From Ochrobactrum sp. BTU1 (GTDB lineage Bacteria; Pseudomonadota; Alphaproteobacteria; Rhizobiales; Rhizobiaceae), in NCBI GenBank assembly GCA_018798825.1, contig CP076356.1, positions 930,001-994,000 of the forward strand: 64,000 nucleotides of DNA, written 5' to 3'. The notes below the pieces were generated by a model that saw only the letters and a list, made by a program, of their open reading frames with translations, had not been told where the DNA came from and did not search any database. The position numbers and the translations under genes are program-made. This document shows, in pieces, positions 15,907 to 37,547 of this stretch (positions are counted from its first letter, which is position 1; each line of letters opens with the position of its first letter).

Positions 15907-16026
15907 AGCCAGCATCTCCGTGCACAATTGTAAGAAGCGGCTCTGATAGGCTCTTCCAATCGCGTCATATCATCCGCGCGATAGTGAGCGCGCTGCAATA
16001 AGTGTGTTGTGACACTTTTTTAATTT

Positions 16027-16039: not shown

Positions 16040-16139
16040 CACATGATAGCGAGAGCATATCTTTGTTGACTGTACTTGTCATGTTTATACGGTGGCCTGC
16101 CAGCCTCCACTAATTCATGCATCGCTATTGGGGAATTCT

Positions 16140-19726: not shown

Positions 19727-20002
19727 ATGTGTACCCCCGACAGAGTGCTCGATATAACACCCTTAGTACAGGCACAAGACACCATTGGAAACCGCTTTAG
19801 CCTCGGTCAAGTATGGAAAGCTTCTTATTATGTTAAATTAACTGGTTGAAATCTAGTGCTGGCATACCGCAACGCAGTCCGTCTCCCATTGATAACCAGT
19901 CAAGATTCTTCGCGATTGCCCCTCCTCAACGGCAATATCGCCCTTTTATCTTGAACAGAAGCGAATTGGCGCCCCGTTGATCCCAAACATTAAGTTCGAA
20001 GC

Positions 20003-20296: not shown

Positions 20297-20601
20297 GACT
20301 TGAGCGTCGTTGCTTTAAGGCGCGCTGCCGCCCGGCGTCTTTCGAAATGAGCCGTGACTTCATCATCCGAGACGTCCGGTCGTGGGTCGTGAAGCGCTTC
20401 AAGAACCTTGCTGCGAAACCAAGCATCGTGCGCTTCGCTGCCTGATATAAGTTCGAGCGGTAATGCCCCCTCGTTCGCCGTCCGGGTGAGCAAGATACGA
20501 ACAACATCCGACACCGTAAGACCCATACCTTCAAGCACAGCAGAGGCACGATCTCGAACTTCGGCATCAATACGAGTTTGAACGAGTGCGTTAGAAGCCA
20601 T
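20293..20601 (-). CDS. RelB/DinJ-family antitoxin
   Basis: This 102-residue protein has an N-terminal ribbon-helix-helix (ALVQTRIDAEVRDRASAVLE ... GLTVSDVVRILLTRTANEG), as in DinJ/RelB, and an Arg/Ala-rich tail that would wrap the toxin. The ATG at 20601 is preceded by a strong GGAGG; a longer frame to 20676 lacks this. It probably represses its own operon. Confidence 0.9.
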   Translation of the reverse strand: MASNALVQTRIDAEVRDRASAVLEGMGLTVSDVVRILLTRTANEGALPLELISGSEAHDAWFRSKVLEALHDPRPDVSDDEVTAHFERRRAAARLKATTLKS

Positions 20602-21169
20602 AAGTTCCTCCAAGTTAAAGCTTGATTGTAATGCATATGAATTACACAGTCTATAGAAGATTTCTGCGCGCGCCAAGCTGCTGCGTTTTTTGCCTTGGAA
20701 GGTTACGAACCACTTTCCCTCGTCTTTGCCAGGTGTGATGATTGCCGGTCAGAAACATCGGTTCCTTTAAAACTGGCATAAACTGGCGGGTTTGAAAACG
20801 GGACAGATTTGGTGGCACGAACTGATCCGTTACATGCGCTTTCCGGAAGATCAGGAATGCGTGACATAGCGTGCAGCAACCGCGGGACTAATCTCCGATC
20901 AGTATACTTTGAACGGCTGATGAGCGCGGCCAATCGTAAATCCTACGCGACTTTAACGACCGCTTCCGACGCCATTGTGGTCGTTCGAGGAATTAGGACC
21001 GTTTTCCAGAAGCTGCGGCTCAAGGGAGCTAGAAGCTGACTGAGTGTTTTGAGATGAAAGACGGGACTAGCAGTCGCCGGCCCGAACAATAAGGGCCTTC
21101 GCTAGACCTGATACGTCGGTTCTTGCTCAAGTGAAATCGACGTCGTAAATGCCCCTGGAGGGAGGAATC
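20602..21169. other. Intergenic region with decayed coding scraps
   Basis: No complete gene. A short frame near 20790-20870 reads like a protein C-terminus (KTGQIWWHELIRYMRF...) without a start, suggesting an eroded gene. Otherwise nothing supported. Confidence 0.35.
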
Positions 21170-22242: not shown

Positions 22243-23238
22243 TCAGGGTCGCAGCACAACCTTCGCACGGCTTATCAAGCCGTTATCGATGTCTGCAAAC
22301 GCGTCCGCTCCTTCGGACAGGGCACGCGTTTCAAACCAGTCGAGGCCGCCAAGGTCGCCTGCGATCATCGCGGCGACAGTGTCTCTGAAATCGTCCGGCG
22401 TGTAGCAATATGCGCCCGTCAACGTAATCTCCTGCAAGGTGATCTTGCGAACGTCCAGTCCGTCACTTCCCGGAAGCAGGCCGATATGAACGATAACTCC
22501 GCCCGGTTCGACCATTTGGCACGCGGCGGCGCGCGTTGACGCGGCTCCGACTGCATCGATGACAAGATCAATGCTGTTCTCTTTCGGAGCCGCACTCTCG
22601 CCCGGCACATAAAGGCGAAAACCACCTTGCGCCGATATCATCGAATGTCGCACCGGGTTTGTCTCTGCGACAGCGATATCGCGAATACCGAAATGTCGCA
22701 GCGCAAGCGCTGCCCCGAGGCCGATTGCTCCGCCGCCAAGCACGACCGCTCTCACCTCGTCCAGAGGCGTCATCAGCAAGGCGCAGCCGCGCTTTGCCGC
22801 GCGCCAGGAAACGGCTAGCGGTTCTGCGAGTGCTGCTGTCCCCACATCGAAGTTTTCGGGAAGCGGAATGACATTGCTTTCCGGTACCACAACATATTGC
22901 GCAAAGGCGCCTTGGCGCGGCTGCATGGAAATGATTTGACGTCGAGAATCCAGGTTGGGCCGGCCAAATCGGGCAAATTTGCCATCGGCAGGTGTCACCA
23001 GCGGATTGATCGTCACTTTCTGGCCTGTCAACAGGCCATTCATCGCTTCCCCGGAAGCTTCGTGCCCGAGGATGACAGGAGGCAAGCGACGAGAATCGTG
23101 GCCATGATAGGCATGCACATCTGAACCGCAGATTCCGACAGCGTCGACCCGGACCAGGACTTCGCCTGCAGACGGGACTGGCTCGACCACATCTGTGAAT
23201 TCAAGCGTATAAGGTGCGGTATATACGAGAGCTTTCAT
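22243..23238 (-). CDS. Zinc-type alcohol dehydrogenase lacking the structural zinc lobe (HpsP-like)
   Basis: This 331-residue MDR enzyme resembles L-idonate/sorbitol dehydrogenases. Catalytic zinc ligands are present (Cys37 in GICGSD, His59-Glu60 in GHEA, Glu139 in AEPLA), and the Rossmann motif is VVLGGGAIGLGAA. The four cysteines of the structural zinc lobe are absent: the region reads NPLVTPADGKFARFGRPNLD. ATG 23238 has AAGGAAG upstream. It is the last gene of the operon that includes an HpsN-type dehydrogenase. With the neighbouring SDR it fits the pair of 2-dehydrogenases proposed to interconvert DHPS enantiomers through 3-hydroxyacetone sulfonate. That role is inferred from context. Confidence 0.75.
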   Translation of the reverse strand: MKALVYTAPYTLEFTDVVEPVPSAGEVLVRVDAVGICGSDVHAYHGHDSRRLPPVILGHEASGEAMNGLLTGQKVTINPLVTPADGKFARFGRPNLDSRRQIISMQPRQGAFAQYVVVPESNVIPLPENFDVGTAALAEPLAVSWRAAKRGCALLMTPLDEVRAVVLGGGAIGLGAALALRHFGIRDIAVAETNPVRHSMISAQGGFRLYVPGESAAPKENSIDLVIDAVGAASTRAAACQMVEPGGVIVHIGLLPGSDGLDVRKITLQEITLTGAYCYTPDDFRDTVAAMIAGDLGGLDWFETRALSEGADAFADIDNGLISRAKVVLRP

Positions 23239-23251
23239 GTTCGGCTTCCTT

Positions 23252-24022
23252 CTACTTCGCCGTAAACCCGCCATCGACGTGGATCGTCTGTCCTGTAACA
23301 TAGGCGGACGCCTCAGACGCCAGGAAGACTGCCGTTCCGTAAAGGTCGTCGAGATTGCCGTTTCTGCCGATCGCCGTCTGCGCGGCATTCGCGGCTGCTC
23401 GTTGCGGATCGGAAAAAACAGGCTCGGTCAGAGGTGTCGGAAAGAACCCCGGGGCGATTGCGTTGCAGGTTATGCCATGGCGGGACCATTCCTCGGCAAC
23501 CGCGCGCGTAAGCTGCACGATTCCCCCTTTAGCGGCTCCGTAAGGCGCCGAATTTGAAAATGCGCGCGTGGACTGCAGAGAGGCGATGTTGATTATCCTG
23601 CCCCAACCGCGTTCCCGCATGAGGGGAGCGAAACCCTGTGTCAACAGAAACGGCGCCCGAAGATGCAACGCCATATGCAGATCGAAGTCGCCGGCCGATA
23701 CCTCGGCGAACGGCTTGCGAAGGTTGACACCCGCGGCATTGACCAGAATATCGACCGCGTCGTTGCTCAAATTCACATCCGCAACGACGCGGTTAACGTC
23801 TTTTGGATCCGCAAGATCTCCGGCAACGGTCTGCACGGGGATGTTCTCGGTCCTCAGAGCTGCCTCCGCTGAGGCCAGATTGGCGATATTGCGCCCGATC
23901 AGCACAACGCACGCACCCTGCAACCCGAGAGCTGTGGCGATTGCCAGCCCAATTCCGGAATTGCCACCAGTCACGACGGCGGTTCGGCCGTCGAGATCAA
24001 AGAGGTTAGACAATCGTCCCAT
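23252..24022 (-). CDS. Short-chain dehydrogenase/reductase (HpsO-like)
   Basis: This 256-residue SDR has the cofactor motif TGGNSGIG (residues 18-25), NAAG, the catalytic Ser in INIASLQS, the Tyr-Lys pair YGAAK, and a typical end TIHVDGGFTAK. The start has GGGAG upstream. It resembles gluconate 5-dehydrogenases. Within this operon it is most likely one of the two DHPS 2-dehydrogenases that, with the zinc enzyme downstream, epimerise DHPS so that HpsN can act on one enantiomer. It should be cytoplasmic and NAD(P)-dependent. Confidence 0.8.
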   Translation of the reverse strand: MGRLSNLFDLDGRTAVVTGGNSGIGLAIATALGLQGACVVLIGRNIANLASAEAALRTENIPVQTVAGDLADPKDVNRVVADVNLSNDAVDILVNAAGVNLRKPFAEVSAGDFDLHMALHLRAPFLLTQGFAPLMRERGWGRIINIASLQSTRAFSNSAPYGAAKGGIVQLTRAVAEEWSRHGITCNAIAPGFFPTPLTEPVFSDPQRAAANAAQTAIGRNGNLDDLYGTAVFLASEASAYVTGQTIHVDGGFTAK

Positions 24023-24051
24023 GCTAGTCTCCCTGCTTCTTGAGGACGTGG

Positions 24052-25374
<1,323 letters not shown>

Positions 25375-25457
25375 TCATACCTTCGATGAGGAGCGTTCCG
25401 TTTCTCCAAAGAAACGGAAGTAGCCCGGTCGCAATAATGGTTCGGTGGCGGTTGGGG

Positions 25458-26501
25458 TTAGTCGATTTTCCCGGCAAAGGCTGCGAGCGCAGGATCGTTG
25501 CGGACCATGTGCACGAACTTCGGTTCGATATAGGTTGCGGTATCCGGATTGCTTGCAATCGTACCAACTTCGGTCATGAAGTCGCCGACGGACGAGAACC
25601 ACGAGTCAAGCTGCGAGTGCCCGTCGTTGCGTTCGAGCAGGTCACTTTGCTCTTGCAGCAAAAAGGTCTGGCGCAGATCAAATTCCGCCTGGGCAGCTTC
25701 GTCGGACACCTCGACGCCGCCCTCGGCGTAAAAGGATCTAAGCATGGCCTTCGCATCTTCGGGATGGGCTTTTGACCAGGCAATACCGCGCAGGAAAACT
25801 GCGAGGAATTTGGCGACGAGTTCAGGCTTTTCTTCAGCAAAGCCCGGTCTGACGACCAATGCTCCCGGTACGGTCGCACCAGCATCCGCGCCGGAGCAGA
25901 GGTAATCCATGCCGGCCCGCTCCTTCAACGTATAGGTGTGCGGCGCCCATACCCCAGCAATGTGGCCGTTATTGCTGATAATCGCCGAGATAACCTGCGC
26001 CTGCGCGAGATTGACGAACTCGACGTCAGCGTTGGCGACACCCCATTTGCGCAGGCACGCCCGAGCCGCGTAGTCGGCAGTGGAATTGGTCGTCAAGAGC
26101 AGTCTCTTGCCCTTTATCGACGTCGGATCAGCCTTCAGGCCATCGATGACGGTGGAGCGCGCCATAATTGCGTTGGCCTTCGACTCGTCATTCGTCAGGC
26201 CAATCGTAAGCAATCCGAACCGGGCAGCGCCCAGGACGGCAGGAACCGAACCGGTGCCTCCAACATCCCAGTCGTTTGCCTGCGCAGCGGCGATCTGCGG
26301 AGCGCCCGCCGGGAACGTGACAAAGCTGGCGTCGAGACCCACTTCGCGCCACCAGTCCTTCTCCTTCGCGATGTAGAAGGGAAGCGCCCAGTAAAGGGAC
26401 GGTTGATAGCTGATCTTGATCGGCTCAAGCTCGGCCGAACGCACTGACGGCGCGGCCATCAGCATCGAGCCCAGCATTACGGCAAGAAGAATTTTCTTCA
26501 T
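25458..26501 (-). CDS. SsuA/TauA-like sulfonate-binding periplasmic protein
   Basis: This 347-residue protein has a signal peptide (MKKILLAVMLGSMLMAAPSV, cleavage near RSA-ELEP) and the NMT1/SsuA fold: KISYQPSLYWALPFYIAKE, then FPAGAPQIAAAQANDWDVGG, and GKRLLLTTNSTADYAARACL. It would bind the imported sulfonate in the periplasm. It sits between the ATPase and HpsN genes in the same operon, which points to DHPS as ligand. Published DHPS operons more often use other transporter types, so the substrate is inferred. Confidence 0.8.
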   Translation of the reverse strand: MKKILLAVMLGSMLMAAPSVRSAELEPIKISYQPSLYWALPFYIAKEKDWWREVGLDASFVTFPAGAPQIAAAQANDWDVGGTGSVPAVLGAARFGLLTIGLTNDESKANAIMARSTVIDGLKADPTSIKGKRLLLTTNSTADYAARACLRKWGVANADVEFVNLAQAQVISAIISNNGHIAGVWAPHTYTLKERAGMDYLCSGADAGATVPGALVVRPGFAEEKPELVAKFLAVFLRGIAWSKAHPEDAKAMLRSFYAEGGVEVSDEAAQAEFDLRQTFLLQEQSDLLERNDGHSQLDSWFSSVGDFMTEVGTIASNPDTATYIEPKFVHMVRNDPALAAFAGKID

Positions 26502-26544
26502 TCACACATCCTCCGTTTGAGTTGCCAGTTCGCAGCCAGTGCGG

Positions 26545-27339
26545 TCAGGCGATCTCCATCGCCTTTTCTTCGCGAAGGCTGCGCCATATCCGCGTGCGCA
26601 GATGGACGAAACTCTCAAGATCCATGACGTCCTCGATCTTCTCGTGCGCATCCCAATTTTCGGCTTGCCTTACGGATCGGATATCGATCATTTCCTTTAC
26701 CCTGCCGGGCTGCCGCGACATGATGGCCACTCGATCGGCAAGGTAGACCGCCTCCTCCACCGCGTGAGTGATGAACATCACGGTACGCGGATTGACGCGC
26801 GCCAGCCGAACCAGTTCCTCCTGCATGACGACACGGGTTTGCGCATCGAGCGCGCCGAACGGTTCGTCCATAAGCAAAACATCGGGGTCGAGCACATAGG
26901 CCCTGGCGATCGACACACGCTGCTGCATCCCGCCGGAAAGCTGGTGGGGAAAGGCGTTTTCGTAGGCCTGGAGGTTCATCAAGGAAAGCGTGCTTGCGAT
27001 GCGCGCGTCACGCTCAAACTTAGGCACTTTCTTATTGCGCAAGCCCAGCTCGATGTTCTGACGAACCGTTTTCCATGGCATGAGCGCGAACTGCTGGAAC
27101 ACCACTGCTCGATCCGGGCCGGGGCGAGTTACAGGCTTTCCGTTTACGGAAACCATCCCCGAGGTGGGGAAGTCGAAACCGGCGACAAATCGCAAGCAGG
27201 TCGTCTTGCCGCAACCGGACGGGCCGACAACCGCGACAAACTCCTTGTCGGCAATTTCCAGATTGACGTCCTTCAGCGCGACGAAGCCATCCTTCTTGCC
27301 GTAGACACGACCGACACCATCAAGGCGGATAATTCCCAT
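26545..27339 (-). CDS. SsuB/TauB-like ABC importer ATPase
   Basis: This 264-residue ATPase has Walker A GPSGCGKTT, Q-loop PGPDRAVVFQQFALMPW, signature LSGGMQQR, Walker B VLLMDEPFGALD and the switch His of FITHAVEEAV. These are the hallmarks of nitrate/sulfonate/taurine importer ATPases. It would energise the heterodimeric permease encoded just upstream. The trailing region (MIDIRSVRQAENWDAHEKI) is normal for the family. Confidence 0.88.
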   Translation of the reverse strand: MGIIRLDGVGRVYGKKDGFVALKDVNLEIADKEFVAVVGPSGCGKTTCLRFVAGFDFPTSGMVSVNGKPVTRPGPDRAVVFQQFALMPWKTVRQNIELGLRNKKVPKFERDARIASTLSLMNLQAYENAFPHQLSGGMQQRVSIARAYVLDPDVLLMDEPFGALDAQTRVVMQEELVRLARVNPRTVMFITHAVEEAVYLADRVAIMSRQPGRVKEMIDIRSVRQAENWDAHEKIEDVMDLESFVHLRTRIWRSLREEKAMEIA

Positions 27340-27410
27340 TTCCTTCTCCTCCAGAACATTCCGTGCGCTGCAGCCAAGTGCACTGGCCGCCTAAGTCGCA
27401 ACGCCGTAAC

Positions 27411-28196
27411 TTAACCAGGCCGTCCCCGGCCTCGCAGAATGCGAGCCTCGATCCCACGGAGCAGGATGTCGATCGCAATGCCGACAAGCCCGATTGCGAT
27501 CATTCCGGACATAACCGTGGTAGTTGAAAGGTTTCCCTGCCCTTGAACCATCATGTACCCCACACCGGTGGATGCCACGATGAGTTCCGCACCTACGAGA
27601 GACTGCCAACCAAGCCCTGCGGATACGCGTAAGCCGGCAATGATCGACGGCACTGACGATGGAAACAGGACTTCCAGGATCGTCCGCGAATCCGGTGTTC
27701 CGAGCATACGGGCGGCTTCAATCAACCGCGGATCCACGAACTTCGCACCGCGATAGGCGTTGATCAGGCAAGGTGGAAAAGCGCCTGCGAAGATGATCAT
27801 GATCGGGCCACCGATACCGGTCCCGAACCAGAGGGCGGCGAATGGCACCCACGCTATCGGCGCAATGAAGCGCACGGCGTCGAAGAGCGGTGTAACGATA
27901 TCGTCCAATAGCCTGAACCAACCCATCATCAGGCCAAGCGGAATGCCGACCAGCGCCGCCAGACCAAAGCCATATGCAAACCGTTCAAAGCTTGCACCGA
28001 GATGCTGCAAGAGGGTTCCGCCCGCAAACCGTGTGTGCAGCAGGAAGCCGAAGCGTTCAGCTACGGCTGCCGGCGATGGCAGAAAGAGTGGCGAAGTCAG
28101 TCCAGAGACCGATAGAAACGTCCAAAGTGCAAAGAAGGCGACGAGGCCTGCGAAGCCAAGAAGAAAGCTTTGCTGAAGAGAAATGCTACGGGCCAT
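27411..28196 (-). CDS. SsuC/TauC-like permease B
   Basis: This 261-residue binding-protein-dependent permease has about six membrane segments and the ATPase-contacting EAA loop (EAARMLGTPDSRTILEVLFP then SSVPSIIAGLRVSAGL). ATG 28196 lies six bases after the stop of permease A; a longer frame to 28247 overlaps that gene. Two different permeases in one sulfonate-type importer imply a heterodimer, which is less common than the usual SsuC/TauC homodimer. Confidence 0.85.
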   Translation of the reverse strand: MARSISLQQSFLLGFAGLVAFFALWTFLSVSGLTSPLFLPSPAAVAERFGFLLHTRFAGGTLLQHLGASFERFAYGFGLAALVGIPLGLMMGWFRLLDDIVTPLFDAVRFIAPIAWVPFAALWFGTGIGGPIMIIFAGAFPPCLINAYRGAKFVDPRLIEAARMLGTPDSRTILEVLFPSSVPSIIAGLRVSAGLGWQSLVGAELIVASTGVGYMMVQGQGNLSTTTVMSGMIAIGLVGIAIDILLRGIEARILRGRGRPG

Positions 28197-28201
28197 GGCT
28201 A

Positions 28202-28984
28202 TCAAACTCCCGCCGCCATTGCGGCCTGATTCCACCGCAGCGACCACTGCTCGAAGCGCGACAGGACGTAGGTTGTCGCCCAGCCGCCGATTGTGACTGC
28301 AACCATCCCGACCAGGATCATCCCTGGATAGAGATCCTGCTGCGCCACATTCAGAACCCTGCCAAGTCCGTAGAGAGCACCGACAAGCTCGGCGGCGACC
28401 AACGTCGTCCAGGAGGCCTGGAGCGAAAGCCTCAATCCGGTGAAGATCATGGGGCTAGCTGCCGGCAACAGCACTTCGAGCGTCAACCTTCTGGGCGGCG
28501 TCCCAAGCATTCTCGCAGCCTCGATCAATGTCTTGTCCAGGCTGCGGATGCCCGAGTAGGCATTGATGACCGACGGAACGAAGGCGGAAAACCAGATCAC
28601 AAGGATCTTTGCAGCGTCACCGAGACCAAGCCACAAAATGGCGAGCGGTATCCAGGCAAGCGGCGGTATCGGGCGGACGATTAGGAAGATTGGGTTGATG
28701 AACGCTTCAGCCTTCCTGCTCCAACCCATCAGCAACCCGAGGGGAACGCCGGTCAGCACTGCGGCAGCGAACCCGGAAAGAACGAGCAGCAGGGAGCGAA
28801 GCACATGCTCCAGCAATGTTCCGTTGGCGTATCCCGGTGACCAGATCTGAACGAGCGCCTGCCAAGCAGCGCCCGGGGACGGGAAGCGCCCGGGCGATAT
28901 GGCGCCGGTCAAAGACGTTAAAACAAACCAAAGTGCCATAACCACGAGAATGGTCGTGGCCCCGACCCTCATCCTCCTCGACAT
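28202..28984 (-). CDS. SsuC/TauC-like permease A
   Basis: This 260-residue permease is the first gene of the operon and is divergent from a LacI-type regulator. The EAA loop is visible (IEAARMLGTPPRRLTLEVLL then PAASPMIFTGLRLSLQA), along with about six hydrophobic helices. It is paralogous to permease B. Operator-like sequences lie just upstream of its start. Confidence 0.85.
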   Translation of the reverse strand: MSRRMRVGATTILVVMALWFVLTSLTGAISPGRFPSPGAAWQALVQIWSPGYANGTLLEHVLRSLLLVLSGFAAAVLTGVPLGLLMGWSRKAEAFINPIFLIVRPIPPLAWIPLAILWLGLGDAAKILVIWFSAFVPSVINAYSGIRSLDKTLIEAARMLGTPPRRLTLEVLLPAASPMIFTGLRLSLQASWTTLVAAELVGALYGLGRVLNVAQQDLYPGMILVGMVAVTIGGWATTYVLSRFEQWSLRWNQAAMAAGV

Positions 28985-29004
28985 CGCGTACCTCCCAGTA
29001 TTTA

Positions 29005-29018
29005 TGCAAACGCTTTCA
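29005..29018. promoter_or_regulatory. LacI-family operator candidate
   Basis: TGCAAACGCTTTCA has the central CG and imperfect symmetry of LacI/GalR-type sites (10 of 14 positions symmetric). It lies 21 bases upstream of the first transporter gene. A second, weaker inverted repeat (ATGAAATTTCTTTCAT, 29112-29127) sits before the regulator gene. Both probably bind the divergent LacI-family protein. Confidence 0.55.
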
Positions 29019-29145
29019 TTTTTGCATCATATTGTCAATGTCTGGCATAGCCTAATCTTCTAATAGTCTCGAATAACACGATTTTATTTGCATGCTTCCG
29101 GCGAAAAGGATATGAAATTTCTTTCATTTCTCGCCGGAGGTTTCC

Positions 29146-30156
29146 GTGAAGAATTCCAAAGCCACCCTCGCGGACGTCGCCAAAGCGGCCGGCGTGTCAC
29201 CCGCCACCGTCTCCCGGGCGATTTCCAATCCTGAATTGGTCAGGCAGGAGACGCTGCGCACCATCCGCGCGGTGGCTAAATCGCTGGGCTATATCCCCGA
29301 TGCGAAAGCCCGGGCGCTCGTTTCCGGGCGCTCCAACAGTGTTGGCGTCGTCGTGCCGACCCTCGATAGCCCGATGTTCTCCAGAGCACTGCATGCGATG
29401 CAAAAGGCGCTTTCGAATGCGGGATTCCAGCTCCTTGTCGCGTCTCACGACTACGATCCATTTCTTGAAGAGCTCGCTGCAAGCAAGTTGATCGGCCAGG
29501 GGGTCGATGGTCTTGTTCTCGTCGGCGCCGATCGTCCGGAAGGTCTTTGGAAACTGGTTGACAGCACCGGAACTCCAACGGTCCTGACCTGGTGCGCGAT
29601 GGAAGGGCGAGACAGCGTTTGCGTCGACAACGTGAAGGCCGGCGAGTTGGTGGCGAACCATCTCCTTGACCTCGGGCACCGCCACTTCGGTGTCCTGACG
29701 GGCGAACGTCGGAACAATGATCGCCAACGCCAACGCCTCGAGGGGGTTCGGAATGCCCTTGAACGACGCGGCGTGCCCCTCGGTGAGACGAACGTTCTCG
29801 AACAGCCAATCTCCATCGCGGGGGGCAGGTCCGGCTGCAATCGCTTGCTGACGCACGCCAATACGCCGACAGCGATAATCGGCCTGATCGATATTCTGGC
29901 GACGGGGGCGATGATCGAGGCGCAAGCACAAGGGATTGCAGTGCCCACAGACATGTCCATTGCGGGAATAGACAATCTCGAGTTTTCCGAGCACGTGGCA
30001 CCTGCTCTGACGACCGTGCACATTCCCGCCGCCAATATGGGTGATCTGGCGGCAATGCGTATCCTTGAAATGCTCAGAGCACCGCAAGCGCCCCGTTCTA
30101 CAATGCTGGATGTTGAACTGATCGCGCGCAAGTCGACCGCGCCTCCTCGCGGTTAG
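29146..30156 (+). CDS. LacI-family transcriptional regulator of the DHPS operon
   Basis: This 336-residue regulator has a LacI helix-turn-helix and hinge (ATLADVAKAAGVSPATVSRA ... GYIPDAKARALVSGRSN) and a periplasmic-binding-protein-like sensor domain (SVGVVVPTLDSPMF, GVDGLVLVGADRP, SIAGIDNLEFSEHVAPALTT). Translation starts at GTG 29146, preceded by CGGAGG at a good distance. It is divergent from the importer/dehydrogenase operon, so it most likely represses that operon until DHPS or an oxidation product is present. The effector is inferred from context. Confidence 0.85.
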   Translation: MKNSKATLADVAKAAGVSPATVSRAISNPELVRQETLRTIRAVAKSLGYIPDAKARALVSGRSNSVGVVVPTLDSPMFSRALHAMQKALSNAGFQLLVASHDYDPFLEELAASKLIGQGVDGLVLVGADRPEGLWKLVDSTGTPTVLTWCAMEGRDSVCVDNVKAGELVANHLLDLGHRHFGVLTGERRNNDRQRQRLEGVRNALERRGVPLGETNVLEQPISIAGGRSGCNRLLTHANTPTAIIGLIDILATGAMIEAQAQGIAVPTDMSIAGIDNLEFSEHVAPALTTVHIPAANMGDLAAMRILEMLRAPQAPRSTMLDVELIARKSTAPPRG

Positions 30157-30267
30157 AGGCAGCAGCGCGCTTGAGCTAATCTCGGGGAGACCTATCAGGC
30201 TGCCTCGCGGTGCAGGCGGGTTGTGTAGCGTATCGGAGGTAAAGCCCTTCATTACGAAGCCTCCCCG

Positions 30268-31701
30268 CTAATTGACCATCGCCAGCAACTCGCCAACCGA
30301 CTTCTTCGCGTCGCCGTAGAGCATGCGGGTGTTGTCCTTGAAGAACAGCGGGTTCTCGATGCCGGAGTATCCGGTGCCCTGCCCGCGCTTCGACACGAAC
30401 ACCTGCTTGGCCTTCCAGACTTCCAGAACCGGCATACCCGATATTGGCGAGTTCGGATCGTCCTGCGCCGCCGGGTTGACGATGTCATTCGAGCCGATGA
30501 CGATGACCACATCGGTCTCGTGGAAGTCCTCGTTGATCTCGTCCATTTCCAGAACGATGTCGTAGGGCACCTTGGCTTCGGCGAGCAGCACGTTCATGTG
30601 CCCCGGCAGACGGCCGGCGACGGGATGGATTGCGAAGCGCACGTACTTGCCGGCGGCGCGCAGCTTGCGCGTCAATTCCGAGACAGATTGCTGAGCCTGC
30701 GCCACCGCCATGCCATAGCCCGGCACGATGATGACGCTGTCGGCGTCGTTGAGGGCGGCGGCAACGCCCTCCGCATCGATGGCGATCTGTTCACCTAAGA
30801 TCTCCATCTGCGGACTGGTCGTTGCGCCGAAGCCGCCGAGAATGACCGAGATGAAGGAGCGGTTCATCGCCTTGCACATGATGTAGGATAGGATCGCTCC
30901 CGAAGAGCCGACCAGCGCGCCGGTGACGATCAGTAGGTCGTTGCCCAGCGTGAAGCCGATGGCCGCGGCCGCCCAGCCGGAATAGCTGTTCAGCATTGAG
31001 ACAACGACCGGCATATCTGCGCCGCCGATGCCCATGATCAGGTGATAGCCGATGAAGAAAGCGGCCAGCGTCATCAGCACCAGCGTCCAGACGCCGGCAC
31101 CATTGACATAGAGCAACAGCAACAGGATCGACAGGGCTGCGGCACCGGCATTCAAGAGATGCCCGCCGGGCAGCTTCTTCGCCTTGCCGTCGACCTTGCC
31201 GGCCAGCTTGCCGAAGGCGATGACCGAGCCGGTGAAGGTAACTGCGCCGATGAACACACCGAGGAAGACCTCAACCTTCATAATCGCCAGTTCAACCGGC
31301 TCCTTGTGGGCCAGCAACTTGGCAAAGCCGGTCAGCGTCGCACGCGCAGCCTCGTCGAGGCCGGCGACATTCGCTGCCTCGAGATGGGCGTTGAAGCCGA
31401 TGAACACGGCGGCCAGACCAACGAAGCTATGCAGTGACGCGACGAGCTGCGGCATTTCGGCCATCTGCACGCGCGAGGCGACGAAATGGCCGAGCACCGC
31501 ACCGCCGGCGATCATTAGGACGACGACGACCCCGTTGCCGACATCCGGCCCGAACACCGTGGCGACGACCGCAAGGCACATGCCGACGATGCCGTACCAG
31601 ACAGCGCGCTTGGCGCTCTCCTGGCCTGAGAGGCCGCCGAGCGAAAGGATGAAGAGAACTGCTGCCGCGATATGGGCGGCCGAAACGATACCGATGGTCA
31701 T
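30268..31701 (-). CDS. pntB: NAD(P) transhydrogenase subunit beta
   Basis: This 477-residue protein has about nine N-terminal membrane helices and a C-terminal NADP(H)-binding domain. Landmarks are [53 protein letters not shown] and [17 protein letters not shown]. With PntA it couples proton flow across the inner membrane to hydride transfer from NADH to NADP. It lies 16 bases downstream of pntA at the end of the suyAB operon. Because DHPS oxidation yields NADH, this placement suggests a role in making NADPH during growth on the sulfonate. Confidence 0.95.
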
Positions 31702-31717
31702 GATGCAAATCCCCCGA

Positions 31718-33292
31718 TCACGACTTCTGGAACATGGCGAGCATGCGCCGGGTGACGAGGAAGCCGCCGACGATGTTGATCGTGGCGATCAGCACGGAGA
31801 GCGCCGCCAATACCATCACAAGCCAGTTGCTTGACCCGATCTGCAGGAGCGCGCCGAGAATGACGATGCCGGAGACAGCATTGGTGACGGCCATCAGCGG
31901 CGTGTGCAGCGAATGCGAGACGTTCCAGATCACCTGGAAGCCGACGAAGCAGGCGAGCACGAAGACGATGAAGTGGCTCATGAAGGCCGCGGGCGCGAAG
32001 GCTCCAACCATCAGGAGCAGCGCCGTGCCGGCGGCGAGCAGCATCAGCTGGTTCTTCGTATCCGCCTTGAAGGCGGCAGCCTCGGCGGCGCGCTTTTCCT
32101 CCGGCGTCGGCTCCCTCACCTTTTCCTTAGGCTTCTGGGCAGCGATCGCCGCGATCTTCGGCGGTGGTGGCGGGTAGGTGATCGCGCTTTTGAAGGCGAC
32201 GGTCGCCCCGCGGATGACATCGTCCTCCATATTGTGCACGATCCGGCCGTCCTTTCCGGGAGTCAAGTCGGTCAGCATGTGGCGGATATTGGTGGCGTAG
32301 AGCGCCGAGGACTGCGCGGCCATGCGGCTCGGGAAGTCCGTATAACCGATGACGGTGACGCCGTTCGGCGAGACGATCTTCTGGTCGGCGACGGTCAGGT
32401 CGCAATTGCCACCGCGCTCGGCGGCAAGGTCGACAACGACGGAGCCGGGCTTCATCGCCGCCACCATGTCGGCAAGCCACAGTTTCGGCGCGTCGCGTCC
32501 GGGGATCAGCGCCGTGGTGATGACGATGTCGATCTGCGGCGCGAGTTCGCGGAACTTGGCCAGTTGCTTCTCTCGGAATTCCGGCGAGGACGGGGCGGCA
32601 TAACCGCCGGTCGCGGCCCCATCCTGCACGCCGCCATCGAAATCGAGAAAGACGAACTCGGCGCCCATGCTCTCGATCTGCTCGGCCACTTCCGCGCGCA
32701 CGTCGAAAGCGTAGGTCTGCGCGCCGAGCGAGACGGCGACGCCGATGGCGGCGAGGCCTGCGACGCCAGCGCCGATGACCAGGACCTTCGCCGGCGGCAC
32801 CTTGCCGGCGGCGGTGATCTGGCCGGTGAAGAAGCGGCCGAAATTGTTGCCCGCCTCGATCACTGCTCGGTAACCGGCGATGTTGGCCATGGAGGACAGC
32901 GCGTCCATCTTTTGCGCTCGGCTGATACGCGGCACCATGTCCATCGCGATGATGTTCGCACCCGTCGAACAGGCCTGCTCCAGGAGTTCGGCGTTCTGGG
33001 CGGGATAGAAGAAGGAGAGCAGCGTATGTCCGGTAACGAGGTGCGCGACCTCGAAGGGCTCCGGCGGACGAACCTTCGTTACGACATCCGAGGCCACAAA
33101 CAGCGCGCCCTCATCGTCGACAACCGTCACGCCGGCCGCGCGATAGGCGTCATCCGAAATGCCCGCCTTCACGCCCGCGCCCGCTTCTACAAAACAATCA
33201 TGGCCCAGCTTCTGCAGCAGCAATGCACTGTCCGGCGTCATCGCGACCCGATTCTCGCCTTCAACTTTTTCCCGAAGTGCGCCGATTTTCAT
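31718..33292 (-). CDS. pntA: NAD(P) transhydrogenase subunit alpha, full-length
   Basis: This 524-residue protein combines the NAD(H)-binding domain ([56 protein letters not shown]) with a C-terminal membrane region of four helices, as in fused PntA. In many Hyphomicrobiales pntAA and pntAB are separate genes, so the fused form is worth noting. ATG 33292 (MKIGALREK) is chosen by family length; the longer frame to 33391 adds an unrelated N-terminus. A Pro/Lys/Glu-rich linker separates the domains. It follows a small membrane-protein gene and suyAB on the same strand. Confidence 0.93.
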
Positions 33293-33387
33293 GGACACTC
33301 TTTCTCTTTGGTTAAAAATTTTGTACGCAGCCTTTACCCTATGCGGACGCCCTGCGCCCGAGCGGCATAACCCTCGAAATAAGCCAA

Positions 33388-33588
33388 TCACACGATGTTC
33401 GCGGCTATCGTCGCTCCGACCAGGATGACCGGTACGGCGCGGAGGCTCACCATCTGCTCGGCCGTGATCCGCGCACCTAAGATGCCGACACCATAGCGGA
33501 TCTGGAGCACGTGATTTTTCACATTCGAGAGTCTTGCCCTTACGGTCATGTGCTTGATTTCAGTCCGCGCCGACAGTTCCGAGTTCAT
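33388..33588 (-). CDS. Small protein between suyB and pntA
   Basis: This 66-residue product has a basic N-terminal part and a hydrophobic C-terminal helix ([16 protein letters not shown]). ATG 33588 has GAGAGG upstream; a longer frame reaches 33648. It fits the operon spacing and could be a small membrane partner of the transhydrogenase. I do not recognise the family, and it could be a chance frame. Confidence 0.4.
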
Positions 33589-33636
33589 CGATTTCTGCCT
33601 CTCTTGAAGATACTTTGGCAGTGTCACCACCCGATC

Positions 33637-33669
33637 GTCGGCCCGCACTTTTTGTGAGAGCGGGCCGAC
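33637..33669. other. Strong hairpin between suyB and pntA
   Basis: Perfect 10-bp arms (GTCGGCCCGC at 33637-33646, GCGGGCCGAC at 33660-33669) enclose a 13-base loop. It starts eight bases after the suyB stop on the minus strand. No T run follows, so partial termination or protection of the suyAB message against 3' decay is more likely than full termination. Confidence 0.6.
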
Positions 33670-33677
33670 ACCGGTGG

Positions 33678-34859
33678 TCAGGCGCTGCGATAGAGCTTGG
33701 TCATCGAAAATTCGCGGTGGCCAAGCGCCTCGGACGCGGTGTTGCGGCCGCTCGCGGTACGCCGGATCATGTCGATGAGAGCATCACCGGCTTCATCGAT
33801 GGTCATTTCCCGGCGAAGAATGCCGGACACATCGACGTCGACGTGCTCGGACATCGTCCGGACGGTGCGTGGATTTGCGGTGATCTTGACCACAGGCAAG
33901 ATTGGGTTGCCGATGACATTGCCCTGCCCTGTCGGGAAGGTGTGAACGACATAACCACCAGCCGCCATCAGCGTGACGCATTCGGCCGCCGCCGAGGAGC
34001 TATCCATGAAGTAAAGTCCGTTGCCCGAGGCCGGAGCCTCGGCCGCGTCGAGGATGTCGATATATTTCGACGTGCGCCCGATCTTTTCAAGGTTGCCGAG
34101 CGCCTTCTCCTCGATCGTGGTCAGGCCCCCTTCGATGTTGCCCTTGGTGGGCTGGCTTTCCGACAGGTCGTCGGTCTGGTGCGCGAAGATCACGTCATCG
34201 GAATAGGCCTTCCACATCTTGTACCAGCGCTCGCCGACTTCGGGATTGATTGCGCGCGCCTTGCAAATGTGTTCGGCGCCGGTGATCTCGGATGTCTCGC
34301 CGAAGCAACCGTAGATCCCTTCGGGAAGCAGCTTGTCGTACATGTTGCCGACCGTCGGGCAGGAGCCGAGACCGGTCGTCGTGTCGCTCTCTCCGCATTT
34401 CGTCGAGATCCAGAGTTCCGAGATCGAGCACTCCTCACGCTGAAGCTCGGAGGCGAAATGCACGAATTCCTTGGCGGAACGCGAAGCATCCATGATCGTC
34501 TTCAGGTCGCCGTTCTGCTCGATCGAGAAGGCAGCGACAGGCTTGCCCGTCTTGGCAATGCCATCGGCAACCCGCTTGGTCCAGCCAGGTTCGATACCGA
34601 TCACGACACAGGCCGCGACGTTGGGGTTCGCGCCAGTGCCGATGATCGTGCGGAAGTGTAGTTCGAGGTCGGCTCCGAACTGCAGGCGCCCGTAGGAATG
34701 GGGAATGGCGAGCGTGCCCTTGATATTGTTCGCCACGGCCTCGCAAGCCGCGTTGGAAATATCGTCGACGGGCAAGATCACGACATGATTGCGGACGCCT
34801 ACGCGGCCATTTTCGCGCCTGTAGCCCATGAAAGTCATGTTGGAATATTTTGTGGTCAT
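33678..34859 (-). CDS. suyB: (R)-sulfolactate sulfo-lyase large (beta) subunit
   Basis: This 393-residue UxaA/altronate-dehydratase-family protein matches Suy[63 protein letters not shown] with a metal-binding Cys, and [20 protein letters not shown]. With SuyA it eliminates sulfite from sulfolactate to give pyruvate, a cytoplasmic iron-dependent reaction. It lies next to suyA on the same strand. Altronate or galactarate dehydratase is the alternative within this fold, but the SuyA-like partner and the adjacent HpsN operon favour sulfolactate. Confidence 0.9.
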
Positions 34860-34871
34860 CGGTCCGCTCTC

Positions 34872-35159
34872 CTACCAGCGCTTCGTCTTGAGGTTGTGGG
34901 TGTGGACATGCCTGCCCTTGGCGACGTCGGCGACGAACTTTCCGATGTCTTCGCCGTACTTCATCGCAGTGTCCCCGATCTTGAGATCGGCCAACGCGAT
35001 CTTGTGACCGATCGGCACATCGTCATGGGCAACCATCTTGAAGCTGGAGTTGTCGTGCGTGACGACGCACAACATGTTCGTGCCGGCTTTCAGGCCTTCG
35101 ACGACGACGACGCCGACGTTGTCTCCAGCCTCATGAATCAACAGTTGGGGAATGGACAC
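34872..35159 (-). CDS. suyA: (R)-sulfolactate sulfo-lyase small (alpha) subunit
   Basis: This 95-residue SAF-domain protein (SIPQLLIHEAGDNVGVVVVE then GLKAGTNMLCVVTHDNSSFK and DVPIGHKIALADLKIGD) is the small partner of SuyB. It starts at GTG 35159 with GGAG eight bases upstream; a longer frame to 35186 starts in the non-coding leader. It is the first gene of the suyAB-orf-pntAB operon, divergent from a GntR regulator, with a 42-bp palindrome directly upstream. Confidence 0.9.
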   Translation of the reverse strand: MSIPQLLIHEAGDNVGVVVVEGLKAGTNMLCVVTHDNSSFKMVAHDDVPIGHKIALADLKIGDTAMKYGEDIGKFVADVAKGRHVHTHNLKTKRW

Positions 35160-35207
35160 GGGTGTGCTCCTCTCAAGCCACGTCACGCAGGGTGATGAAT
35201 TGTTAAA

Positions 35208-35249
35208 CTCTTATGTCTTATATAAGACGTCTTATAGAAGACATAAGAG
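35208..35249. promoter_or_regulatory. 42-bp near-perfect palindromic operator of the suy operon
   Basis: Both 21-base halves read CTCTTATGTCTT-x-TATAAGAC inward; 20 of 21 positions are symmetric, and the centre is TATAAGACGTCTTATA. Overlapping TCTTATA/TATAAGA units suggest two to three adjacent dimer sites for the divergent GntR/HutC-type regulator. It lies 48 bases upstream of suyA and 81 bases upstream of the regulator gene, so it can control both. Confidence 0.75.
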
Positions 35250-35330
35250 GCTTTTCCTGTCAATCGTCTTGCGATAGAATCGCGAACGCGCCCATCTCGG
35301 GGCGAGAAAACGGGGCTTGCAGAGTAAGAA

Positions 35331-36071
35331 ATGAACAAATTAAAACAGGAAAGCGGCGCACCAATCGGTCCCAAACCGTTGTATGCCCAAGTGCGCGACC
35401 AGTTGGTGCGCCGGCTTGTGACGGGTGAATGGACGCCGGGAATGATCCTGCCCAGCGAACAAGAGATCGCCCGCAGTCTCAGCGTAAGCCAAGGAACGGT
35501 CCGAAAGGCTCTGGATGCAATGACGGCGGACAATCTCCTGGTACGGCGGCAAGGACGAGGTACTTTCGTCGCGCAACCGGAAGACTCGAGGATCATGTTC
35601 CAGTTTTTTCGCTTGGTGCTGGATGGAGGGGAAACTGACTTCCCACAATCCCTGACGCTCGCGACGAGAGCAGTTCAAGCGCCTGCCAACGTGTCGCAGT
35701 CCCTCGAATTACCGCCGGGTACCATGATGCTACGAGTAGAACGCGTGCGCACGCTTGCGGGAAATCCTGTGATCAACGAAGTCATATGGCTTCCGAAGGA
35801 CCGGTTTCCGGGGTTCGACGCCTTGGATGCTATCCCGAACAATATCTATCAGTTGATATCTGCGCGCTGGGGTATCACAATCGCCAGGGCCGACGAGCAA
35901 CTAAGGGCGACCGTTGCGGATGAAATAGATGCGCAGAGACTGGCGTGCCCACTTGGCCATCCATTGCTGGCAATTCAACGCGTTGCAGTCGACCTTGAAG
36001 ACAAACCAGTCGAGTTGCGACAGTCGCGATGTTTAACCACCACTACTCATTATGCGGTCAGTCTGCGTTAA
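35331..36071 (+). CDS. GntR/HutC-family regulator of the suy operon
   Basis: This 246-residue regulator has an N-terminal GntR winged helix (PLYAQVRDQLVRRLVTGEW ... LSVSQGTVRKALDAMTADNL) and a C-terminal UTRA effector domain (GTMMLRVERVRTLAGNPVIN then LLAIQRVAVDLEDKPVELRQ). HutC-type proteins bind small ligands and usually repress. Divergence from suyA across a 42-bp palindrome makes the suy operon the likely target, with sulfolactate a natural effector candidate. Confidence 0.85.
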   Translation: MNKLKQESGAPIGPKPLYAQVRDQLVRRLVTGEWTPGMILPSEQEIARSLSVSQGTVRKALDAMTADNLLVRRQGRGTFVAQPEDSRIMFQFFRLVLDGGETDFPQSLTLATRAVQAPANVSQSLELPPGTMMLRVERVRTLAGNPVINEVIWLPKDRFPGFDALDAIPNNIYQLISARWGITIARADEQLRATVADEIDAQRLACPLGHPLLAIQRVAVDLEDKPVELRQSRCLTTTTHYAVSLR

Positions 36072-36479
36072 ATCTGACGCAATTGTAGATCGTCTTACGA
36101 CGTTTGTTTCGGAAACGGGACGAAAATTGAGCTGAAGCCTGTGGTTTCGAAAGCGCTATTCACTCAATTGTTGATAAGATCTCTGCGAATAACTAATCGT
36201 ACACATGTGACGATGTTATAAGCGCACGTATTGGATTTTAAAGTCAGCCCAACACACCAGATATGACGAAAATCCCATTTTGCCACATGTTGAAACTTGG
36301 ATCTGGAGCTGAGGACGTACTACCTTCAAGGTCAATGATGACTAAGCTGCGATGCAGTGATTGAGGCATATATCGCCGCTGTCCAGCAACGACAAAAACC
36401 ACATTAACGTCGATCCTGAGCGCCAATAATGGCGAATAGGGATCGCAACGTTATCAATCTCACAGGCTTTGCACCCCGT
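36072..36479. other. Intergenic region, no gene seen
   Basis: About 400 bases between the sulfonate island and a VapBC module. No supported coding region or clear repeat. Confidence 0.35.
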
Positions 36480-36884
36480 TTAGGGTACGGTTTCCAAATC
36501 TGTTTGCCGAAACTCGTCATGGGTGGCGAGAATGGGAACACGATAATATTTTGCGCAGGCGTAATGCAGACAATCGCCCAGATTAAGCCGCCTCGCGCCC
36601 TTGCCATATTTCTCGATTGCCCCGATGGAAAGGCTCGCTGCACTCTTGCCAACCGGCAAATCCACCAGTTTGATATTGCGCGAATCCAGCAAGTCCATGA
36701 GGAAAGCTTCGGCCTGTGTAGGCGTGCAATCGAACTTATCTGGACGTGATAAAGCAATAACTGTTTCCAGCACTGCGACCGGTGATGTGAGGCGCGTCTT
36801 GGAATTTGTCAGTGCGTTTGAAACGCTTATCGCTTCTGGCTTTTTGGTCGCAAGTGCGATCAGGGCGCAAGCATCGACAAACAT
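36480..36884 (-). CDS. VapC-family PIN-domain toxin
   Basis: This 134-residue PIN nuclease has the acidic residues expected in VapC: Asp4 (MFVDACAL), Glu40 (SPVAVLETVIALS), Asp104 (LNLGDCLHYACAKYY) and Asp122 (ATHDEF). VapC toxins cleave RNA, often tRNA. The start overlaps the antitoxin stop as TAATG. The gene appears intact. Confidence 0.9.
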   Translation of the reverse strand: MFVDACALIALATKKPEAISVSNALTNSKTRLTSPVAVLETVIALSRPDKFDCTPTQAEAFLMDLLDSRNIKLVDLPVGKSAASLSIGAIEKYGKGARRLNLGDCLHYACAKYYRVPILATHDEFRQTDLETVP

Positions 36885-37129
36885 TAATTGTCATCCCACA
36901 TGTCGTTAAAGACCGCTTGAGGGAGAGGGTTTTTCGCCTGATCTGTGAGGCGCATTCCATGCTTCTTTCGCAAACGTTCGGCAGTTTCCAACGGTGTTTC
37001 AGCATTAACACGGCTATCGATAGCCTCGTTGACTGCTAATATAATCGCATCCGTCAGATTGCGTCCGGTGAGCGCTGCAAACTTGCGAATGAGCTTATCC
37101 GCTTCGTCATTGGTAATGTTGATCGCCAT
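36884..37129 (-). CDS. VapB-family antitoxin
   Basis: This 81-residue protein starts with the PSK-type ribbon-helix-helix (AINITNDEADKLIRKFAAL then TGRNLTDAIILAVNEAI) and ends in a toxin-binding tail with PLPQAVFNDMWDDN. It directly precedes VapC and likely autoregulates the pair. Confidence 0.88.
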   Translation of the reverse strand: MAINITNDEADKLIRKFAALTGRNLTDAIILAVNEAIDSRVNAETPLETAERLRKKHGMRLTDQAKNPLPQAVFNDMWDDN

Positions 37130-37547
37130 GGTCGAAAACCTTCAATCATCTACATTTTTTATTGAAGCATGAAGTTTCGCGCGAAATCAGCGTTCTTCTG
37201 CCAAATTGCCAGTACTGTTAGTTAGCGATCTCATCATGGCGAAAATAGCCCCTCGCCTTCACGTGATATGAACTCACAAGCTGAGCCTGCGGCCTTTCTA
37301 GGCTTTTGATTTATCTGCGAAATGAGACAAGATATTAATCAGCTCCAGGCAGTTACCGAGGGATTGCAGTCATGCAGGCAACAGTGTCAGACATTATAAA
37401 ACTTCAATCCACAAAGTTGGCACATTAGTATCGCCTCACGCACTATTTGTGGAATCATGTAGCCAAGCTTTGTCGTGCTTGCTTTCGCCTGAAATTTCTC
37501 GCACGCTATTGTCCGACCACATGGTAGACTACATGGGAGGAAAAGAC
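37130..37547. other. Intergenic region upstream of ggt
   Basis: About 420 bases, AT-richer than the flanks. No supported gene; it presumably carries the promoters for vapBC (minus) and ggt (plus). Confidence 0.35.

What the first reader, a model, noticed from the sequence alone, without database searches (positions are those of the whole stretch)
22243..36071. Complete DHPS-to-pyruvate sulfonate pathway split into two regulated operons
An HpsN-type HisD homologue, an SDR and a zinc ADH are co-directional with a sulfonate-type ABC importer. The next operon on the same strand encodes SuyAB sulfolactate sulfo-lyase. Known HpsN and SuyAB chemistry joins these into DHPS to sulfolactate to pyruvate plus sulfite. 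Each operon has its own divergent regulator (LacI, GntR). GC content appears higher than in the flanks, so the block may be a transferred catabolic island.
Basis: partly seen in the sequence, partly recalled or inferred. Interest (0 to 1): 0.85.

Follow-up and report, generated by a model that had tools for sequence, protein, structure and literature searches.

The report
Acquired sulfonate-eating gene island with transhydrogenase
A bacterium carries an acquired set of genes that very likely lets it take up the algal and plant sulfonate DHPS and break it down to pyruvate and sulfite; the pathway is known, but here it comes with an extra enzyme that moves electrons between two cell cofactors and with a widely conserved DNA switch.

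Summary
Window 22243-36071 encodes a two-operon, two-regulator cluster: LacI / ABC importer-HpsN-HpsO-HpsP and GntR / SuyA-SuyB. HpsN is a DHPS dehydrogenase, not HisD (712 bits to solved CpHpsN, 235 to the best HisD; GRYAH motif, all checked active-site residues). SuyB groups with sulfolactate sulfo-lyases (67% or more in the drawn genomes; other family members 38% or less). The island is acquired: GC 59.5% against 50.8%, and of 35 genomes held for the genus only one besides the host has it, with the operons swapped. Carbon route DHPS to pyruvate: complete. Sulfur route: no sulfite dehydrogenase found. Its descent differs from that of other suy-linked pntAB genes (second genome, Paracoccus, Halocynthiibacter, Cupriavidus), so the linkage arose more than once, but it is rare. 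Also new to the finding: TCTTATATAAGA lies, with at most one mismatch, in 46 of 46 gntR-suyA intervals (0.02 expected). HpsO carries an NADP-type and HpsP an NAD-type residue wherever alignable, so PntAB may rebalance these pools or supply NADPH on a C3 diet. Known pathway, new variant; moderate interest.

The parts
22243..23238 (-). HpsP-type zinc alcohol dehydrogenase (331 aa)
   Evidence: 338 bits to PDB 8wwd over residues 49-381 of the open ORF, next best 94; NAD-type Glu at the end of beta-2 in 70 of 70 HpsP rows counted
23252..24022 (-). HpsO-type SDR
   Evidence: 290 bits to 9pvq, 248 bits to 8wwf '(R)-DHPS dehydrogenase HpsO'; Arg44 in 64 of 65 HpsO rows counted, the other not aligned there
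24052..25371 (-). HpsN, DHPS 3-dehydrogenase
   Evidence: 712 bits to 8v35 sulfopropanediol 3-dehydrogenase, 235 bits to the best HisD; GRYAH and Q249 H252 E319 H320 D353 K354 H412
25458..26501 (-). ABC substrate-binding protein, SsuA/NMT1 type
   Evidence: NMT1; SsuA_fam 120 bits, below its cut-off of 163.5
26545..27339 (-). ABC ATPase
   Evidence: ABC_tran; 85% identical in the P. versutus cluster
27411..28247 (-). ABC permease 1
   Evidence: BPD_transp_1
28202..28984 (-). ABC permease 2
   Evidence: BPD_transp_1
29005..29018 (.). candidate LacI (HpsR) operator TGCAAACGCTTTCA
   Evidence: 1 mismatch to TGCAANCGNTTGCA, met with at most 1 mismatch in 33 of 65 LacI+HpsN loci, 0.02 expected; in the window alone such a site is not beyond chance (4 matches at 2 places, 1.96 expected)
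29146..30156 (+). LacI-family regulator divergent from the hps operon (HpsR-like)
   Evidence: LacI and Peripla_BP_3; 73% in G002, 44% in C. pinatubonensis
30268..31701 (-). PntB, accessory NAD(P) transhydrogenase beta
   Evidence: PF02233 613 bits; the genome's other PntB is only 53% identical
31718..33292 (-). PntA, fused alpha1-alpha2 transhydrogenase subunit
   Evidence: NF006942 792 bits over cut-off 383; 4TM region PF12769
33678..34859 (-). SuyB, sulfolactate sulfo-lyase large subunit
   Evidence: GD_AH_C and GD_AH_second; 66% to the protein in the hpsNOP-suyAB cluster of C. pinatubonensis HN-2
34872..35159 (-). SuyA, small subunit (SAF domain), GTG start
   Evidence: SAF just over its cut-off; start codon checked
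35216..35241 (.). two candidate GntR operators, TCTTATATAAGA and TCTTATAGAAGA
   Evidence: the only two sites with at most 1 mismatch in 64 kb, 0.04 expected; conserved in 46 of 46 gntR-suyA intervals
35331..36071 (+). GntR/UTRA-family regulator divergent from suyAB
   Evidence: GntR and UTRA domains

Best explanation
A horizontally acquired catabolic island for 2,3-dihydroxypropane-1-sulfonate (DHPS). The ABC importer brings DHPS in. HpsN oxidises R-DHPS with two NAD+ to R-sulfolactate. HpsO (NADP-type) and HpsP (NAD-type) handle the enantiomers, by epimerisation or by separate oxidation (the literature disagrees). SuyAB cleaves R-sulfolactate to pyruvate and sulfite. LacI governs the importer/dehydrogenase operon; GntR governs suyAB through TCTTATATAAGA palindromes. 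A separately recruited proton-translocating transhydrogenase, PntAB, turns the NADH made by HpsN into NADPH, for growth on a C3 product and possibly for HpsO. Shown here: gene content, family membership, active-site residues, acquisition, separate descent of pntAB, conserved operators. Inferred: substrate of the importer, regulator-operator pairing, direction of HpsO/HpsP, role of PntAB.
For: HpsN identity and residues; HpsO/HpsP matches to DHPS-dehydrogenase structures; SuyB identity gap and 66% to the C. pinatubonensis cluster protein; same module set in G002 with swapped operons and in another order in P. versutus pTAV3 (P. ferrooxidans pFER3 as far as shown); HpsN, SuyB and accessory PntB in the same 2 of 35 genomes of the genus; GC; PntB tree; operator conservation; cofactor residues.
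Against: No sulfite dehydrogenase or exporter gene in the island; the genome's one strong PF00174 protein is MsrP, so sulfite disposal is unexplained (a YeiH-type exporter lies on another contig; SoeABC was not searched). PntAB sits 385 bp behind suyB, so it may have its own promoter. Of 152 held SuyB loci (146 distinct) only 5, from four organisms or lineages, have pntB nearby, so PntAB is dispensable for the pathway. Closest PntB relatives on Shinella, Sinorhizobium and Rhizobium plasmids lie in other contexts. In P. versutus the GntR nearest to the window's (69%) stands behind hpsP while the one beside suyA is only 38% identical, so regulator and operator are not firmly paired. The ISME J paper reports activity with NAD(P)+ for HpsO and HpsP in general, which does not single out the cofactor split.
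Confidence: 0.88

Rival explanations
1. The island degrades DHPS as stated, but PntAB is an unrelated neighbour that landed beside suyAB by chance and serves general NADPH supply.
For: PntB is near SuyB in 5 of 152 held SuyB loci, in none of the 44 drawn from phylum and class samples, and in none of 11 other ABC-type hps loci, some on short contigs; the nearest PntB relatives are plasmid genes in other neighbourhoods.
Against: The linkage recurs in this genus, Paracoccus, Halocynthiibacter and Cupriavidus with different pnt lineages, and in this genus accessory PntB occurs only in the two genomes that have suyAB.
Confidence: 0.4
2. The cluster serves mainly sulfolactate or another C3 sulfonate, with HpsNOP acting on a related substrate.
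For: GntR-suyAB occurs without an HpsN match in 32 of the 80 named SuyB loci, within the stretch held, so the suy operon is a separable unit; importer specificity is unknown.
Against: HpsN has every residue tested that marks DHPS dehydrogenases and is in one operon with the importer; CpHpsN is highly selective for R-DHPS (PMC11382572, abstract and passages).
Confidence: 0.08
3. The HisD homologue is a true histidinol dehydrogenase and SuyAB an altronate/galactarate dehydratase.
For: The NCBIfam hisD and Pfam Histidinol_dh models match above cut-off; the SuyAB domains are named after the dehydratases.
Against: The genome's own HisD and its other SuyB-family protein are other genes at 35% and 32%; motif and identity gaps.
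Confidence: 0.01

Closest known systems
hpsRNOUP-suyAB of Cupriavidus pinatubonensis (JMP134 in PMC11382572; HN-2 plasmid p2 read here)
   Same: LacI regulator, HpsN 72%, HpsO 58%, HpsP 44%, SuyA 44%, SuyB 66%; in HN-2 pnt genes follow suyAB
   Different: one co-directional run, MFS importer instead of ABC, no GntR annotated next to suyA, PntA split into two genes
hps/suy cluster of Paracoccus versutus UW1 pTAV3 (L104); P. ferrooxidans pFER3 alike as far as shown
   Same: hpsNOP, LacI, four-gene ABC importer, GntR, suyAB, fused-type pntAB
   Different: different gene order; P. versutus adds a YeiH-type exporter, pyruvate carboxylase and a SorA-like sulfite dehydrogenase (below NCBIfam's cut-off) that the window lacks
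ABC-type LacI/importer/HpsN operons of the same order (L223-L233)
   Same: LacI divergent from importer genes and HpsN; HpsN 58-78%
   Different: no pntAB in the stretches held; suyAB on the same stretch in 3 of 11
LacI-HpsNOP-SuyAB clusters among the 80 named SuyB loci; R. pomeroyi has TRAP genes hpsKLM at hpsNOP (PMC4334477, passages)
   Same: same enzymes; HpsN in 40 of 80
   Different: no match to this binding protein in any of the 80; HpsN only 53-58% identical; GntR match in 3 of the 40

Membership tests
HpsN (DHPS 3-dehydrogenase) | G-R-Y-A/S-H motif with sulfonate-binding His126 (CpHpsN numbering) | tested here: met
   GRYAH at 123-127; own HisD has GTASY; His in 74 of 74 HpsN rows counted
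HpsN (DHPS 3-dehydrogenase) | zinc and catalytic residues Q248 H251 E318 H319 D352 K353 H411 | tested here: met
   all present one position later; HisD shares all but the Lys
HpsN (DHPS 3-dehydrogenase) | NAD+-dependent oxidation of R-DHPS to R-sulfolactate | not testable with these tools
   needs enzyme assay
SuyAB (R-sulfolactate sulfo-lyase) | separate small SAF-domain and large GD_AH subunits, grouping with SuyB rather than dehydratases | tested here: met
   domains; identity gap 67% or more against 38% or less; no tree of the family was built
SuyAB (R-sulfolactate sulfo-lyase) | sulfite release from R-sulfolactate | not testable with these tools
   needs enzyme assay
HpsO/HpsP (DHPS 2- or 3-dehydrogenase pair) | SDR and zinc ADH related to solved HpsO and the solved ADH of the same PDB series | tested here: met
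   248 bits to 8wwf HpsO, 338 bits to 8wwd, same operon as HpsN
hpsNOP-suyAB DHPS cluster | HpsNOP, SuyAB, importer and regulator together | tested here: met
   compared
Proton-translocating transhydrogenase PntAB | PntB and PntA with 4TM region | tested here: met
   PF02233, PF12769, PF01262, PF05222; PntA over its NCBIfam cut-off, PntB at 674.5 bits just under 689
Complete sulfonate mineralisation | sulfite dehydrogenase or exporter with the lyase | tested here: not met
   none in the island; own strong PF00174 protein is MsrP; YeiH-type exporter only on another contig

The most novel reading that the evidence does not exclude
PntAB is a dedicated part of the pathway: HpsP oxidises S-DHPS with NAD+, HpsO reduces the ketone to R-DHPS with NADPH, and the proton-driven transhydrogenase turns the NADH back into NADPH, so that proton-motive force pushes a one-way deracemisation of DHPS into the only enantiomer HpsN accepts. 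Different lineages recruited different pntAB genes for this.
Probability: 0.15. Interest if true: 0.65.

Novelty: new variant of a known kind. Interest (0 to 1): 0.36.

Why it matters
DHPS and sulfolactate are intermediates between photosynthetic sulfolipid and sulfite (PMC11382572). The window shows the pathway moving as a two-operon module onto a 1.0-Mb replicon of a genus where, of 35 genomes held, it occurs in two. The two additions are directly testable: a GntR operator conserved across many Alphaproteobacterial loci gives a sequence handle to predict sulfolactate regulons, and the recurrent transhydrogenase offers a way to decide whether HpsO and HpsP epimerise DHPS (the proposal cited in PMC11382572) or oxidise each enantiomer separately (PMC11131964).

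Tried and rejected
Empty insertion site: the right-hand neighbour GGT is in 19 of 35 genomes of the genus, own included; in 10 fetched of the 18 others only the GGT gene and its immediate edges (at most 2.04 kb) aligned to the window, so no empty site or junction was defined. Phage origin: no near match in 50,697 phage records. tRNA-linked integration: no tRNA found in the window.

A cofactor switch that tracks pntAB (HpsO NADP-type only where pnt is present) was tested and rejected: HpsO has Arg and HpsP has Glu in clusters with and without pntAB alike. The count dropped 8 loci as re-fetches or short copies and used identity floors of 48, 43 and 53% for HpsO, HpsP and HpsN; one HpsO row had no residue aligned.

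General enrichment of pntAB beside suyAB was tested and is weak: 0 of 44 drawn loci, 1 of the 80 nearest named loci, 4 of 151 held SuyB loci and 5 of 152 (146 distinct SuyB) once P. ferrooxidans was added. L104 and L260 were brought in by a DNA query that itself contained pntAB. My rough chance estimate for 151 such stretches is about 0.8 (inference from about one PntB per genome). Co-occurrence of accessory PntB and SuyB in the 100 relatives gives P = 0.021 without the own genome and 0.056 without G002 too, uncorrected for kinship or genome size. Codon composition does not set pntAB (GC3 0.83) clearly apart from suyA (0.82), only from the hps operon (0.60-0.73).

In one search I left G002 out of the suy-linked group; one search repeats the tree with it in and with 5 of the 19 rows labelled hk, to save time. 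Active-site positions were first read one off and corrected.
Full report
What is there. On the minus strand the window carries two gene runs. Run one, 28984 down to 22243: two ABC permeases, ATPase, substrate-binding protein, HisD-family protein, SDR and zinc ADH, with a LacI regulator divergent at 29146-30156. Run two, 35159 down to 30268: SuyA, SuyB, PntA, PntB, with a GntR/UTRA regulator divergent at 35331-36071. The block has 59.5% GC against 50.8% for the rest of the window.

HpsN. The HisD-family protein scores 712 bits against the solved Cupriavidus sulfopropanediol 3-dehydrogenase (8v35), 485 against 8wwe, named (R)-DHPS dehydrogenase, and 235 against the best histidinol dehydrogenase. 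The paper on CpHpsN (PMC11382572; abstract and passages) gives G-R-Y-A/S-H with His126 as the mark of HpsN, and names Gln248, His251, Glu318, His319, Asp352, Lys353 and His411. All are present here one position later. The genome's own HisD (C1:266435-267616, 35%) has GTASY in place of GRYAH and Tyr in place of the Lys; it shares the other six. In the HpsN rows counted, His is kept in 74 of 74.

SuyAB. SuyB and SuyA carry the galactarate/altronate dehydratase domains in two separate chains. In draws of 398 genomes of the phylum and 385 of the class, own included, the matches fall into two groups: 67% identity or more, and 38% or less; one row, G099, is a 164-residue piece at 96%. Among plasmids the series runs 66%, 61% (Rhodococcus), then 39%. 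The window's SuyB is 66% identical to the protein encoded with hpsNOP in C. pinatubonensis HN-2; the own genome's other match is 32%. By sequence the only PDB match of SuyB is galactarate dehydratase at 126 bits. I built no tree of this family.

HpsO and HpsP. The SDR matches 9pvq (290 bits) and 8wwf, named (R)-DHPS dehydrogenase HpsO (248 bits), with gluconate 5-dehydrogenase 6le3 between them (250 bits). The ADH matches 8wwd (338 bits, next best 94). PMC11131964 (abstract and passages) reports that HpsO acts on R-DHPS and HpsP on S-DHPS, at C3; PMC11382572 (passages) keeps the view that the pair interconverts the enantiomers. At the end of beta-strand 2, HpsO has Arg in 64 of 65 rows (the other not aligned) and HpsP has Glu in 70 of 70. 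By general knowledge of Rossmann folds (recalled) this predicts NADP(H) for HpsO and NAD(H) for HpsP. It is the rule in clusters with and without pntAB, so it does not track PntAB.

Acquisition. In the 35 genomes held for the genus, HpsN above 50% identity, SuyB and accessory-type PntB (72% or more) each occur in G000 (own) and G002 only. In G002 the same two units lie in the other order: LacI / importer-HpsNOP, then GntR / SuyAB-PntAB; the DNA aligns at 70-76% in three pieces covering most of 22262-35911. The window lies on a 1,003,303-bp contig. Its flank matches a 1.03-Mb plasmid of Ochrobactrum quorumnocens at 94.7% over 1.8 kb, so I infer an Ochrobactrum-like host; the genome itself is unnamed. 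An IS3-type sequence lies at 352-1296. No junction was found.

The importer variant. The ABC-type operon is not private to this host: in 397 genomes of the order, own included, 11 others have the binding protein, and all 11 fetched loci have importer genes and HpsN together. In 3 of the 11 SuyB is on the same stretch. G036 of the same family has importer and HpsNOP, with its SuyB on another contig. None of the 80 named SuyB loci matches the binding protein at 45% or more; 40 have HpsN, 32 have a GntR match and no HpsN in the stretch held. PMC11382572's main text has no word beginning with ABC.

PntAB. The pair is a fused-type transhydrogenase and differs from the genome's other PntB (53%). In a tree of 23 PntB rows the five suy-linked ones need five changes of label; holding the four fused-type ones together is rejected (p-AU 1.8e-82), and so is holding the window with G002 (p-AU 0.008) (the groups were tested after I had seen an earlier tree). 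The window's PntB nests with Sinorhizobium and Shinella plasmid copies that do not lie near suyAB. The C. pinatubonensis row is a long branch. So pntAB was joined to suyAB more than once, or was replaced, or copies left suyAB again. pntAB has GC3 of 0.83 against 0.60-0.73 for the hps operon, but suyAB is close at 0.78-0.82. The linkage is rare: 5 of 152 held SuyB loci (146 distinct), 0 of 44 drawn loci. C. pinatubonensis HN-2 has pntAA-pntAB-pntB one gene after suyB; P. versutus has exporter, pyruvate carboxylase, pntAB and a sulfite oxidase behind suyB, as if the set were fitted for growth on pyruvate with sulfite as waste (inference). Papers: no paper of the open-licence library held pntAB with suyAB; the three hits for sulfolactate with transhydrogenase and the one for dihydroxypropanesulfonate with transhydrogenase looked unrelated from the listing and were not opened; the main texts of PMC11382572, PMC11131964 and PMC12421959 do not hold the word. 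JMP134's published cluster is given as hpsRNOUPsuyAB, without pnt genes.

Operators. The suyA-gntR interval holds TCTTATATAAGA and TCTTATAGAAGA, the only two such sites in the window (0.04 expected). In 46 of 46 divergent gntR-suyA intervals among held loci (GntR and SuyA at 40% identity or more, gap under 600 bp; own and closely related loci included) the best site has at most one mismatch, against 0.02 expected from base shuffles. P. versutus, left out by the cut-off, has TCTTATACAAGA; its GntR beside suyA is 38% identical to the window's, while a 69% one stands behind hpsP. C. pinatubonensis HN-2, which has no GntR there, has no site. Of 57 perfect sites in 3.72 Mb of held loci, overlaps included, 44 lie within 450 bp upstream of suyA, 2 (one place fetched twice) at the hps promoter of G002, 1 upstream of HpsN, and 10 elsewhere. 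I looked at 6 of these 10: they lie near TRAP transporter genes, PfkB kinases, an HpcH/HpaI aldolase with an ABC sugar-type binding protein, and a TctC protein. The LacI side has TGCAAACGCTTTCA at 29005-29018; TGCAANCGNTTGCA is met with at most one mismatch in 33 of 65 loci (0.02 expected), though in the window alone the looser pattern is not beyond chance and such sites are common to LacI-type regulators (recalled). Searches for sulfolactate with GntR (3 papers) and for suyR (13, of which 10 were listed) showed nothing on this operator in titles and abstracts; in PMC4334477 (passages) the one GntR shown belongs to ectoine uptake.

Gaps. No sulfite dehydrogenase: the one strong PF00174 protein of the genome is MsrP (489 bits over a cut-off of 207); a second, 35.9-bit match on C4 was not identified. 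A YeiH-type exporter gene lies on C1, of the family that stands near SuyB in 40 of 151 loci. SlcC/ComC, GabD and SoeABC were not searched.

Verdict. An ordinary pathway, correctly read, in a new genomic form: an acquired two-operon module with an ABC importer and a separately recruited transhydrogenase, plus a conserved operator.

Noticed in passing
L007:297, 2314, 3667; L028:7003; L015:2651; L026:13268: Perfect TCTTATATAAGA sites also lie near a TRAP transporter, PfkB kinases, an HpcH/HpaI aldolase and a TctC protein, suggesting that the GntR regulon may reach into sulfosugar breakdown in Hoeflea, Nitratireductor and Sinorhizobium.
   Followed up: partly
L105, L106, L107: The closest PntAB relatives sit on Shinella, Sinorhizobium and Rhizobium plasmids near nrd, inositol/protocatechuate and deo genes: a mobile accessory transhydrogenase.
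   Followed up: partly
L104:21466-22167 and 30219-30941: P. versutus has two GntR genes; the one nearest to the window's (69%) is behind hpsP, the one beside suyA is only 38% identical.
   Followed up: no
window 36404-37130 and 20000-20640: Small ORFs at both edges of the island whose translations read like toxin-antitoxin genes (by eye only; the one scanned, 20235-20636, had no Pfam match).
   Followed up: no
window 33293-33677: 385-bp suyB-pntA gap with a GC-rich inverted repeat right after the suyB stop, without a T run (sequence printed; not folded).
   Followed up: no
window 48439-52959: 1506-aa autotransporter with autochaperone domain.
   Followed up: no
window 12168-18326: FecCD-type importer genes beside a TonB siderophore receptor.
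   Followed up: no
L115:1569: In G002 a GntR-type site also lies in the hps promoter, so there the two operons may be cross-regulated; the window has no such site there.
   Followed up: partly
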